NCBI GenBank assembly: GCA_035624455.1
Contig: DASPRM010000157.1
Location: forward strand, 1 to 64,000
Source of the DNA: Terriglobales bacterium
Lineage (GTDB): Bacteria > Acidobacteriota > Terriglobia > Terriglobales > Acidobacteriaceae
Direction of reading: 5' to 3'
Length of the DNA: 64,000 nucleotides
In this document: positions 52,062-55,338 of the stretch, piece by piece
Layout: each line of letters begins with the position of its first letter
How positions within the stretch are numbered: position 1 is the stretch's first letter
Notes under the pieces: model-generated
The model's database searches: none
What the model saw: the letters and a program-made list of their open reading frames with translations, nothing else
What the model was told of the DNA's origin: nothing
Position numbers and translations under genes: made by a program

Positions 52062-53039
52062 CTATTCGATCGGCTCTACCACCACCGCCGCATCCTGCTT
52101 CTCTGGCAACTGCACCAGCACCGTAGCCGACAGCACCAGCACGATCCCGACAATCTGGCTGCCCCGCATCGTCTCTCCGAGAGCAAAAAACGCAATCAGG
52201 ATCGAGAACACCGGCTCCAGGCAACTAGTCACGATCGCCCTGGTTGGATCCAGATTCTGCAGCCCGGCAAAATAAAACGAAAACGGCAGTAGAATCGACA
52301 TGACCGCAAACACCGCCAGAAACAGCCACTGCGCTCCCGAATAGTGCGCAGCCATGATTTTCCACGGCGGATTGATCACCATCCAGAAGAGAGCTGTCCA
52401 AACAAATACATACAAGAGCACTTTCCAGCGGTCGTGGTGATCCAGCAGGCTAGGCGCGTACACGTTGTAAAAAGCGAACGAAAACGCTGCCACCTCTGCG
52501 GCAATCAGTCCAAGGGTATCCATTCGAAAACCACCCTCGTGAAACAAGCCGATTACCAAGCTAATCCCCACAATCGCCAGCGCCACCGAAATCACCTTCA
52601 TCAACGTCGCCCGCTGCCGGCCTCGCAGCACCATGTACAGCAAGACCCATACCGGAGCCGTGTACTGCAGCACAATTGCGGTGCTTACATTTGTTTTCTG
52701 AATAGCCAGATAGTAGAAGTAGTTCGATGCCACCATCCCGAAAATCGCCAGTGCCAACGCGCGAGCAAGGTCGACGCCAGAGAATCGCAATCCCGCTCTC
52801 CCCCGACGCCACAGCAGAATAGGCGCCAATACCAGGAGCGAAATGGTGGTCCGGCTTTGCGCCAGGATCAAAGGATCGATCGCTGGAAGCCCTTTGCCCG
52901 AGGTAAGCCGTCCCGTGAAAGCAGCTCTCCCCAGGCTTGCGGAGACTCCCCAGCACAGTGTCGCTGCGGCAATGAACAGATAGCCGCGCACGGGATGTGG
53001 ATTATTTCGATAGGACCTGATCGATTTCGTCGCGGTCAA
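52062..53039 (-). CDS. EamA (DMT superfamily) transporter
   Basis: A 325-residue membrane protein with ten helices in two EamA repeats. The start of each repeat is visible as YLFIAAATLCWGVSASLGRA and AAEVAAFSFAFYNVYAP, and the end of each carries FGMVASNYFYYLAIQKTNVS and PFSFYFAGLQNLDPTRAIV. The likely export or import substrate is a metabolite, not known. The TTG start at 53039 overlaps the end of the selenocysteine glutaredoxin gene by 38 bp; GTG at 52991 would avoid the overlap. Neither has a good ribosome site, so coupling to that gene is plausible. Confidence 0.85.
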   Translation of the reverse strand: MTATKSIRSYRNNPHPVRGYLFIAAATLCWGVSASLGRAAFTGRLTSGKGLPAIDPLILAQSRTTISLLVLAPILLWRRGRAGLRFSGVDLARALALAIFGMVASNYFYYLAIQKTNVSTAIVLQYTAPVWVLLYMVLRGRQRATLMKVISVALAIVGISLVIGLFHEGGFRMDTLGLIAAEVAAFSFAFYNVYAPSLLDHHDRWKVLLYVFVWTALFWMVINPPWKIMAAHYSGAQWLFLAVFAVMSILLPFSFYFAGLQNLDPTRAIVTSCLEPVFSILIAFFALGETMRGSQIVGIVLVLSATVLVQLPEKQDAAVVVEPIE

Positions 53040-53241
53040 ATCCGATCAATACCTCATCCCCAACCACCAGGGTGGGCGTAGAGCGGCTGTTGTATTTGTA
53101 GACCAAATCTTCGACTGCTGCGGGATCGGCGGAAACATCGCGGTCTTCGTATTCGATACCTCTCTCCGAGAGGTAGGCCTTGATCGTGTGGCAGGGCGGT
53201 CAGCCCGGCTGAGTGAATACAACGACCTTCCTCGGCTTCAT
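53002..53241 (-). CDS. Selenocysteine-containing glutaredoxin (in-frame UGA at the redox site)
   Basis: Reading the minus strand from ATG 53241 to TAA 53002 gives 79 codons with one internal TGA at 53202-53200. The frame encodes MKPRKVVVFTQPG, then TGA, then PPCHTIKAYLSERGIEYEDR, and ends with the glutaredoxin features SRSTPTLVVGDE (cis-proline P56) and LIGFDRDEID. The TGA falls exactly at the first cysteine of the CPPC active site, giving U14-P-P-C17. On both sides the frame is intact and family-like over the whole length. A SECIS-type hairpin follows (separate entry). The product should be a NrdH/Grx-like thiol-disulfide oxidoreductase of 79 residues. It lies 41 bp after osmC and overlaps the EamA gene. 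A sequencing error TGC to TGA is the main alternative. Confidence 0.85.
53157..53175 (-). promoter_or_regulatory. Bacterial SECIS-like hairpin of the selenoprotein gene
   Basis: On the minus strand TACCTCTC, loop GGA, GAGAGGTA form a perfect 8-bp stem. The loop begins 32 nt after the UGA. Bacterial SECIS elements are known to be short hairpins just downstream of the UGA, with a small apical loop that has a G in one of the first two positions, at about 16-37 nt. This hairpin meets all of these points and lies inside the coding sequence, as required in bacteria for SelB binding. Confidence 0.75.
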
Positions 53242-53282
53242 AGCATGCACAATGCCAGCAATCCTACACTAAACAACAATAT

Positions 53283-53687
53283 TCAATCTCCCAACAGCTC
53301 CACCTGCGTCGTGATCTTCGCAGTCCTCTCCAGCATGGCTGAGACAGAACAGTATTTCTCTTTCGAGAGTCGCACCGCATCCTCCACTGCCTTTCGCGAT
53401 ACTGGACCAGTTACCCGATACAGCAAGCGTATGTCCGTGTACACCATGGGTGGATCTTTGGCCCTCTCCCCTTCGGCACTTACTTGCACCCGCGTGAACG
53501 CTTCGCGCTTCTTCCGCAGAATGTTTACTACGTCGTAGGCCGTGCAGGCGCATAACCCGATGAGCACCAGGTCCACGGGACTATTAGCAGTCTTCTCGCT
53601 GCCCGCGTCCACCACAATTGCATGACCGCTGCTCGCCTCGGCGATAAATCGGTCGTTATCTGTCCAACTGGCAGACGCCTTGACCAT
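53283..53687 (-). CDS. OsmC-family peroxiredoxin-like protein
   Basis: A 134-residue OsmC/Ohr-fold protein. The resolving/peroxidatic cysteines are C48 in GLCACTAYDVVN (C46 next to it) and C113 in KEKYCSVSAML, the usual two positions. These proteins reduce organic hydroperoxides using thiols. The gene is 41 bp upstream of the selenocysteine glutaredoxin on the same strand, so a shared redox role is likely but not shown. It ends in LLGD. No regulator of the OhrR type is nearby. Confidence 0.9.
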   Translation of the reverse strand: MVKASASWTDNDRFIAEASSGHAIVVDAGSEKTANSPVDLVLIGLCACTAYDVVNILRKKREAFTRVQVSAEGERAKDPPMVYTDIRLLYRVTGPVSRKAVEDAVRLSKEKYCSVSAMLERTAKITTQVELLGD

Positions 53688-53764
53688 TCAATCCCCTCTC
53701 GTACATCAATTCACATTTCTGACCTTGCGCTGGTCCTCGGTTTTGGGGTTGTCCATTCTTCACT

Positions 53765-55192
53765 TCAACGCCGATTGTCCGTTTGTGGCTCCGGATGAAT
53801 CAGCACCCGAAACAATCCAGGCGCTTCCTGTTTGAAGCGTGTCTCCATGGCCGTCATCACTTCGTGAACGCGCGACAAGGGAAGGTCGTCCTCCATGGTG
53901 CAATGGCACGAAACGTAGAGCTTCCCGCCTACTCGCTTGAACTGCATTTCGTGAACGTCCTTGACCTCCTGAAATTGAGGAGCGATCTCCTTGAGCTTGC
54001 GTTCCAGGGCTGCATTCTGCACCAGTTCATCCCCGGTCTCGATAGTTGCAGGCTCACTCTCAATGTGCGTCAAAATGGTCGAGATCTCCCCAATCTGCTC
54101 GCGTATCTCCTCCTCGAGTTGCGTTACCCGGTCATGCGCCTGTTTCAGCGGAAGAGTCTCCTGCATCTCCAGATGCTGCTCTACGTGCAGTCTGCCATGC
54201 AAGTCCTGAATGCTGATGTCGTGCACTCCCAGGTTATGCCGCGCAGCCACGGCACGGATGCGATCAAAGATGTTTTCGCCGCGTACCGCCCGCGGCAACG
54301 AGTGCACCACTACGTCGGCATCCGGAAGAATGCGGCGCGCTGCTGCCGTCACCTCTCCCACCACCTCCTCCGATTTTTGAAACGTGACATTGCGGCTCAA
54401 GGCCACCGACAAATCCGCAAAGTAGCGGTTGCCTGACCGCCGAATTCGAGCCCGGTCCACCTCCAGCACCCCCGGAACGCCGGAAACCGCCTCGATTACC
54501 TTGCCTCGCGCACCTTTGGGAGCAGCGTCCAGCAGAGCATCAGTGGTCTGCCGTGCCAGGCGCCAACTCACCGAGATCACCACTCCCGCCACAAACAAGG
54601 CTGCGATCGGATCGGCTCTTTCCAGCCACGCGAGTTGGAAACGCTCACCCACCCAAACCAGTGCCAGTCCCAGAATCACCACTGCGCTTGACCAGATGTC
54701 GGTTCGGAAATGTAGCGCATCCGCCTGCAGCGCCTGGCTGTCATACTTATCCGCAATTCGTTGTAGAGCCCGTGATCGCCACCAGTCCACCACCATGGAG
54801 AGTGCCATGACCGCGAACGCCGCCAGCGAAGGTTCGATCTCCACCATGTGAAAGAACAGGCGCTTGATGGCTTCCCAGATGATCCAGGCACAGGTGAGCA
54901 GCAGCAGCCCGGTTTCCAGAAAGGCGGAGAAGCTCTCGATCTTGCCATGGCCGTACTGATGCTCCGCATCCGCCGGCTTGTCCGACACTCGGACCGACAT
55001 CAGCGTGATCACTGCGGCCACCAAATCGAGTCCAGAATGTAGAGCTTCTGAGAGTATGCCCAAGCTGCCCGTGCTTAAACCAACCACAATCTTCAGCACT
55101 GTGACCGCAATCGCCGCCCACACTGAGTTCTGCGCCACGGAGCGTTTCTCCGTGTGCATCGCGCTGCTCGTGAGCGTGGTCGTGTCGGACAT
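53765..55192 (-). CDS. Cation diffusion facilitator (CDF) transporter with extended C-terminus
   Basis: A 475-residue metal transporter. ATG at 55192 was chosen; the frame is open 15 codons further. The six-helix CDF domain has GLSTGSLGILSEALHSGLDL with the metal-site histidine and aspartate, HQYGHGKIESFSAFLE, and ADALHFRTDIWSSAVVILG. Normal CDF proteins have about 300 residues; here the cytoplasmic part is about 270 residues and seems to hold two or three metal-binding/dimerisation domains (VPGVLEVDRARIRRSGNRYF; HNLGVHDISIQDLHGRLHV; FQEVKDVHEMQFKRVGGKLY). Substrates could be zinc, iron or manganese. Confidence 0.88.
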   Translation of the reverse strand: MSDTTTLTSSAMHTEKRSVAQNSVWAAIAVTVLKIVVGLSTGSLGILSEALHSGLDLVAAVITLMSVRVSDKPADAEHQYGHGKIESFSAFLETGLLLLTCAWIIWEAIKRLFFHMVEIEPSLAAFAVMALSMVVDWWRSRALQRIADKYDSQALQADALHFRTDIWSSAVVILGLALVWVGERFQLAWLERADPIAALFVAGVVISVSWRLARQTTDALLDAAPKGARGKVIEAVSGVPGVLEVDRARIRRSGNRYFADLSVALSRNVTFQKSEEVVGEVTAAARRILPDADVVVHSLPRAVRGENIFDRIRAVAARHNLGVHDISIQDLHGRLHVEQHLEMQETLPLKQAHDRVTQLEEEIREQIGEISTILTHIESEPATIETGDELVQNAALERKLKEIAPQFQEVKDVHEMQFKRVGGKLYVSCHCTMEDDLPLSRVHEVMTAMETRFKQEAPGLFRVLIHPEPQTDNRR

Positions 55193-55338
55193 AGCTCTTC
55201 TGATTATCCCTGTTCGCCACTGAAGCAGCCAAGCCAAACCCGCCAGAAACCCGGCCTGGCGCTTCCGAAATCGAGGCGCAGATGTGCTACGATGGCCTCT
55301 CCACCCTAGTTGTGTTTCACGATCGGAGACAATTGAGA

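What the first reader, a model, noticed from the sequence alone, without database searches (positions are those of the whole stretch)
53157..53175. SECIS-type hairpin with GGA loop 32 nt after the UGA
Seen directly: TACCTCTC-GGA-GAGAGGTA, a perfect 8-bp stem inside the coding region. The loop position (32 nt after the UGA) and a G in the first loop positions match what is established for bacterial SECIS elements. Such a stem exactly here is unlikely to be chance and separates Sec insertion from a sequencing error.
Basis: partly seen in the sequence, partly recalled or inferred. Interest (0 to 1): 0.85.

Follow-up and report, generated by a model that had tools for sequence, protein, structure and literature searches.

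The report
Selenocysteine signal in a glutaredoxin-like gene
A small RNA hairpin just after an in-frame UGA in a soil bacterium's redox gene is kept by evolution as the signal for inserting selenocysteine. Across the gene family the hairpin sits in either of two places exactly 9 bases apart.

Summary
The hairpin is real. On the minus strand, 32 nt separate the UGA (53200-53202) from a GGA loop closed by a perfect 8-bp stem (53157-53175). It lies inside an 82-codon glutaredoxin-like gene (53002-53250) of an Acidobacteriota genome that also encodes SelA, SelB, SelD and tRNA-Sec(UCA). In this one sequence the hairpin is only moderately improbable: about 2.5% of synonymous recodings give an equally good one. 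The comparison with homologues settles it. 45 UGA homologues carry the stem in the same register, 44 of them with at least 6 bp (0.8 expected from protein sequence alone), with compensatory changes at 5 of 8 pairs. None of 38 Cys/Ser homologues passes the same test. The unexpected part is a second clade of 33 UGA homologues whose hairpin lies exactly 9 nt nearer the UGA (23 nt, loop GUU). In both registers the Leu-Ser codons form one arm, pairing upstream in one and downstream in the other. One genome carries a gene of each register and one detected SelB. I found no description of such a switch in the papers I could search.

The parts
53002..53250 (-). Sec-containing glutaredoxin-like gene with a GUPPC motif (82 codons from GTG 53250; the homologues suggest the ATG at 53241)
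   Evidence: Pfam Glutaredoxin 58.5 bits; TIGR02196 YruB family 90.0 bits (cut-off 88.55); NF041212 Uxx-star 58.6 bits (cut-off 66). 82 distinct UGA homologues and 38 Cys/Ser homologues align at this codon.
53200..53202 (-). in-frame TGA read as selenocysteine (first residue of the UPPC active site)
   Evidence: the only stop in the frame; homologues have TGA, TGC or TGT (one TCT) at the same codon, with the protein conserved on both sides.
53157..53175 (-). bacterial SECIS hairpin: 5' arm 53175-53168 (TACCTCTC), loop 53167-53165 (GGA), 3' arm 53164-53157 (GAGAGGTA)
53168..53199 (-). 32-nt stretch between the UGA and the apical loop (includes the 5' arm)
   Evidence: the published bacterial SECIS model allows 16-37 nt (PMC13188914).
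53283..53687 (-). OsmC-like protein gene, conserved upstream neighbour
   Evidence: synteny.
52062..53039 (-). EamA-family transporter gene, conserved downstream neighbour (its annotated start overlaps the end of the Sec gene)
   Evidence: synteny.
53765..55237 (-). cation diffusion facilitator (CDF) gene, conserved further upstream
   Evidence: synteny.

Best explanation
The hairpin is the SECIS element of a glutaredoxin-like selenoprotein gene. Inferred from the known bacterial mechanism: when the ribosome reaches the UGA, the mRNA hairpin binds SelB carrying Sec-tRNA(Sec), and selenocysteine is inserted instead of termination, giving a redox protein with a UPPC active site. Shown here: the hairpin, its conservation beyond what the protein sequence requires, its tie to UGA rather than Cys codons, and the genes of the machinery. 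Not shown: SelB binding, Sec insertion or enzyme activity.
For: 1) It meets every constraint of the published bacterial SECIS model: 3-9 nt loop, 4-16 bp stem, G in the first two loop positions, 16-37 nt spacing, MFE <= -7.5 kcal/mol (model in PMC13188914). 2) At the 32-nt spacing, 44 of 45 sequences of its register have a stem of >=6 bp, against 0.83 on average and 5 at most in 200 sets of synonymous recodings; no other 3-nt-loop spacing reached two sequences. 3) Covariation: 95% of cells paired, 5 of 8 pairs with double changes, 28 such cells, 0 of 500 shuffles as high, slid controls 1-3 cells. Pair states changed about three times each at pairs 2 and 3 on the tree. 4) By one test, 78 of 82 UGA homologues carry a stem in one of the two registers and 0 of 38 Cys/Ser homologues do. 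5) The 3' arm uses the rare Arg codon AGA in 32 of 38 Arg-bearing genes; AGA is 4% of Arg codons in the window and 17 of 401 elsewhere in these genes. 6) The genome has SelB, SelA, SelD and tRNA-Sec with anticodon UCA. Its SelD has its own in-frame UGA followed at 20 nt by GUCCAGC-GGU-GCUGGAC. 7) Of 25 sampled Sec-gene genomes 24 have a SelB match (one partial match is under the cut-off); of 15 genomes sampled for a Cys homologue, 9 have none, including five nearly finished ones.
Against: No experiment shows Sec in the protein. Folding energy of the single sequence is unremarkable. Three UGA genes of the same clade (L014, L157, L165) have imperfect stems, though L165 is a broken copy. The homologues are related, so counts overstate independence. 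NF041212 (Uxx-star) scores below its curated cut-off.
Confidence: 0.96

Rival explanations
1. The stem is a by-product of the conserved peptide YLSERG, whose codons happen to be self-complementary, with no RNA function.
For: The arms are fully coding, and synonymous recoding gives an equally good stem somewhere in the SECIS window in 2.5% of draws for this gene.
Against: Across the clade, recoding explains 0.8 of 44 stems. Synonymous changes covary with distant ones: Leu CTC/CTT with Arg AGA/Lys AAA, and Tyr/Phe TAC/TTC with Gly GGT/GGA. Cys homologues lack the stem.
Confidence: 0.01
2. The UGA is a true stop or a sequencing/assembly error of a Cys codon, and the downstream frame is a remnant.
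For: TGA differs from the Cys codons TGC/TGT by one base.
Against: The UGA occurs at the same codon in 82 distinct sequences from many assemblies, with the frame intact on both sides in nearly all, a SECIS hairpin after it, and the Sec machinery in the genome.
Confidence: 0.01
3. The hairpin is a conserved RNA element with some other role (for example mRNA stability or pausing) and only coincides with the Sec codon.
For: No direct SelB binding data.
Against: Presence of the hairpin follows UGA versus Cys codons, spacing and loop fit the SECIS model, and SelD in the same genome carries the same kind of hairpin after its UGA.
Confidence: 0.02

Closest known systems
Bacterial SECIS element (bSECIS consensus model, bSECISearch; E. 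coli fdhF/fdnG/fdoG)
   Different: The 32-nt spacing is near the upper end of the model. The family uses two fixed registers, 32 nt (GGA/GGC loops) and 23 nt (mostly GUU/GUA loops), which share the Leu-Ser codons as one arm.
Sec-containing glutaredoxins and GUXX-star / Uxx-star proteins (NCBIfam NF041212, NF041211, NF041114; glutaredoxin selenoproteins listed in PMC1794560 and PMC13188914)
   Same: About 80-residue glutaredoxin fold with Sec as the first residue of UxxC near the N terminus.
   Different: Below the NF041212 cut-off (58.6 against 66) and just above the YruB-family cut-off TIGR02196 (90.0 against 88.55). Conserved next to OsmC and EamA genes.
SelD (selenophosphate synthetase) SECIS of the same genome
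   Same: Perfect 7-bp stem, 3-nt loop beginning GG (GGU), after an in-frame UGA.
   Different: 20 nt from the UGA rather than 32.

Membership tests
Bacterial SECIS element | Stem-loop directly downstream of an in-frame UGA, inside the coding region | tested here: met
[quoted passage not shown]
   GGA loop; model quoted
Bacterial SECIS element | Upper stem 4-16 bp, spacing 16-37 nt, MFE <= -7.5 kcal/mol | tested here: met
   8 bp, 32 nt, -10.7 kcal/mol
Bacterial SECIS element | Conserved by base pairing among Sec homologues and absent from Cys homologues | tested here: met
Bacterial SECIS element | Bound by SelB and needed for UGA readthrough | not testable with these tools
   Needs a reporter or a binding assay
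Sec-decoding genome | selA, selB, selC (tRNA-Sec UCA), selD present | tested here: met
NCBIfam TIGR02196 (YruB-family glutaredoxin-like) | Score at or above the curated cut-off | tested here: met
   90.0 against 88.55 bits with U read as C
NCBIfam NF041212 (Uxx-star) | Score at or above the curated cut-off | tested here: not met
   58.6 against 66 bits

The most novel reading that the evidence does not exclude
Within one selenoprotein family the SECIS moved by exactly three codons by swapping hairpin partners. The Leu-Ser codons (CTY-TC) are the 3' arm of a hairpin at 23 nt in one clade (pairing with upstream Lys-Glu codons GAAAGA) and the 5' arm of a hairpin at 32 nt in the other (pairing with downstream Glu-Arg/Lys codons GAGAGA or GAGAAA). 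Sequences such as L046, which can pair both ways, suggest the path. SelB of these bacteria would then read at least three spacings: 20 nt (SelD), 23 nt and 32 nt.
Probability: 0.55. Interest if true: 0.6.

Novelty: new member of a known kind. Interest (0 to 1): 0.42.

Why it matters
It confirms a selenoprotein gene that a standard gene caller would cut at the UGA, and shows that comparison of homologues can give strong support for a SECIS before any experiment. The two-register family offers a natural test of how much freedom SelB allows in SECIS spacing, and of how a coding region can relocate an RNA signal without losing the protein.

Tried and rejected
Rfam at gathering thresholds found nothing in the window, so it says nothing for or against this hairpin. 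Single-sequence folding z-scores were uninformative. A tree of 65 usable protein columns could not decide whether register A arose once: two A/B changes on the best tree, and one clade not rejected (p-AU 0.475). The direction of the switch is therefore not claimed. Tests on independent pairs went the right way but were too few for significance. L046 was first called register A by my automatic rule because both registers score 7 of 8; I count it as B with an extra A-like pairing. I considered the remnant stem in L142 (Cys, no SelB match) as possible chance: it is an 8-bp stem one base off register, so I call it a likely fossil only. A search from a Bacillota centre to find the register in other phyla was not accepted by the tool. 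Whole genomes were not available as files, so other selenoproteins of this genome were not counted.

Full report
What is there. On the minus strand the gene 53002-53250 encodes MHAMKPRKVVVFTQPGUPPCHTIKAYLSERGIEYEDRDVSADPAAVEDLVYKYNSRSTPTLVVGDEVLIGFDRDEIDQVLSK when its single in-frame TGA (53202-53200) is read as a residue. It matches Pfam Glutaredoxin (58.5 bits), the YruB family TIGR02196 (90.0 bits, cut-off 88.55) and, below its cut-off, the Uxx-star family NF041212 (58.6 against 66). The TGA is the first position of the UPPC motif. Exactly 32 nt lie between it and the loop of TACCTCTC-GGA-GAGAGGTA, 53175 down to 53157. The finding's description is correct; the strand is minus.

Is one sequence enough? 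No. The hairpin is in the MFE of all four stretches tested, and on its own folds at -10.7 kcal/mol, but dinucleotide shuffles fold about as well for the longer stretches. Holding the protein fixed and redrawing codons, 2.5% of recodings give a stem of 8 bp or more in the permitted window with a G at the loop start, and 0.2% give it at this spacing. The case has to rest on homologues.

Homologues. Whole-genome searches over class, family, order and phylum, plus named GTDB genomes, gave 120 distinct sequences aligned at the Sec codon: 82 TGA, 37 Cys, 1 Ser. The closest named matches are Acidobacteriota of the Terriglobia (Candidatus Angelobacter, Silvibacterium, Acidipila and others), which places the window's genome there. 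Stem scores at two positions sort the TGA genes cleanly. Register A has 45 genes with 32 nt between the UGA and the loop. Register B has 33 genes with 23 nt (L046, which my automatic rule put in A, is counted here). Four are degenerate (L014, L157, L165, L181). None of the 38 non-Sec genes passes the same test. Scanning spacings 14 to 43, no 3-nt-loop stem of 6 bp or more recurs at any other spacing (threshold two sequences). At 32 nt there are 44 of 45 register-A genes (synonymous recoding: mean 0.83, maximum 5 of 200 draws); at 23 nt, 31 of 33 register-B genes (mean 0.34, maximum 2).

Covariation. In register A, 95% of cells pair, 28 cells carry changes on both sides, in 5 of 8 pairs, and 0 of 500 shuffles reach this; sliding the partner by one to three columns leaves 1 to 3 such cells. 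C-G changes to U-A at pair 3, U-A to G-C at pair 2, A-U to U-A at pair 7. At pair 3 a synonymous Leu change (CTC to CTT) goes with Arg AGA to Lys AAA; at pair 7 Tyr TAC to Phe TTC goes mostly with a synonymous Gly change GGT to GGA. The pair states change at least three times each at pairs 2 and 3 on a tree that leaves out the hairpin columns; this is too few for a sign test, but none went the other way. Register B also covaries (93.9% paired, 15 double-change cells, 0 of 500). Each register fails on the other clade: A on B sequences 68.6% paired, B on A sequences 53.1%. Arg at the 3' arm is AGA in 32 of 38 genes that have Arg there; AGA is 4% of Arg codons in the window's long frames and 17 of 401 elsewhere in these genes.

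Machinery. The genome has SelB (351 bits, cut-off 242), SelA (558 bits, cut-off 268), SelD (360 bits, cut-off 125) and a tRNA-Sec with anticodon TCA. SelD itself has an in-frame TGA and, 20 nt on, the loop of GUCCAGC-GGU-GCUGGAC, so the same cell carries a second hairpin with a 3-nt loop starting GG. Among 40 genomes checked, Sec-gene genomes have a SelB match in all but one (G132, 91% complete, 420 contigs; the G190 match is partial and under the cut-off), while five nearly finished Cys-only genomes (G284, G292, G087, G374, G212) have none. G413, with a Cys gene and no SelB match, still shows an 8-bp stem with an AGGT loop one base off register (L142), which looks like a fossil SECIS.

Mechanism. 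By the established bacterial mechanism (PMC1794560, PMC13188914), SelB-GTP-Sec-tRNA(Sec) binds the hairpin and delivers Sec at the UGA. The hairpin meets each numerical constraint of the published model. What is shown is the signal and its constraint; insertion itself is inferred.

The unexpected part. In register B the arms are (A)-K-E codons GCGAAAGA and F-L-S codons TCTTTCG(C), loop GTT. In register A they are Y/F-L-S codons TACCTCTC and E-R/K-G codons GAGAGGTA, loop GGA or GGC. The two hairpins overlap by six nucleotides in the Leu-Ser codons, which serve in the 3' arm in B and the 5' arm in A; the shift is exactly 9 nt. L046 can pair both ways (7 of 8 in each), and its MFE is register B. 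Genome G449 carries an intact gene of each register (L151 A, L162 B) and one SelB match; its congener G406 has the B gene and a broken A copy (L161, L165). G449 is a fragmented assembly of about 810 contigs, so mixing cannot be excluded. The tree needs two A/B changes, and one clade is not rejected (p-AU 0.475), so I claim two registers and an evident arm-sharing geometry, but not the direction or number of moves. A 2006 study reported that SECIS phylogenies agreed with those of their proteins (PMC1794560). Four of the seven paper searches could have shown a shift within a family; their result lists, and the passages read in three papers, describe none. That is weak evidence of novelty.

Neighbourhood. 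The order CDF - OsmC - Sec gene - EamA on one strand is kept in most same-family loci with enough flank, which suggests, without proving, a shared role in thiol or peroxide defence.

Verdict. This is an ordinary SECIS in a new member of a known selenoprotein type. The two-register behaviour of the family is the part worth following.

Noticed in passing
L033, L036, L037, L039-L059, L160-L164, L178, L180, L184, L186: A second clade of the family carries its SECIS hairpin exactly 9 nt closer to the UGA (mostly loop GUU/GUA at 23 nt), sharing the Leu-Ser codons as an arm with the 32-nt register.
   Followed up: yes
window 52062-55237 (-): Gene order CDF transporter / OsmC-like / Sec glutaredoxin / EamA transporter on one strand is conserved across the family; the EamA frame's nominal start overlaps the Sec gene's end.
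   Followed up: partly
L068 1531-1563 (G000:C95): SelD of the same genome is itself a UGA gene with a 7-bp GGU-loop hairpin 20 nt after the UGA.
   Followed up: yes
L142 (G413:C16): A Cys homologue in a genome with no SelB match keeps an 8-bp stem with an AGGT loop near the SECIS position, a likely fossil SECIS.
   Followed up: partly
L165 (G406:C107): A broken copy of the register-A gene in a genome whose register-B paralogue is intact; the sister genome G449 keeps both.
   Followed up: partly
L173 (G535:C477): One homologue has Ser (TCT) at the Sec/Cys position, with the rest of the protein conserved.
   Followed up: no
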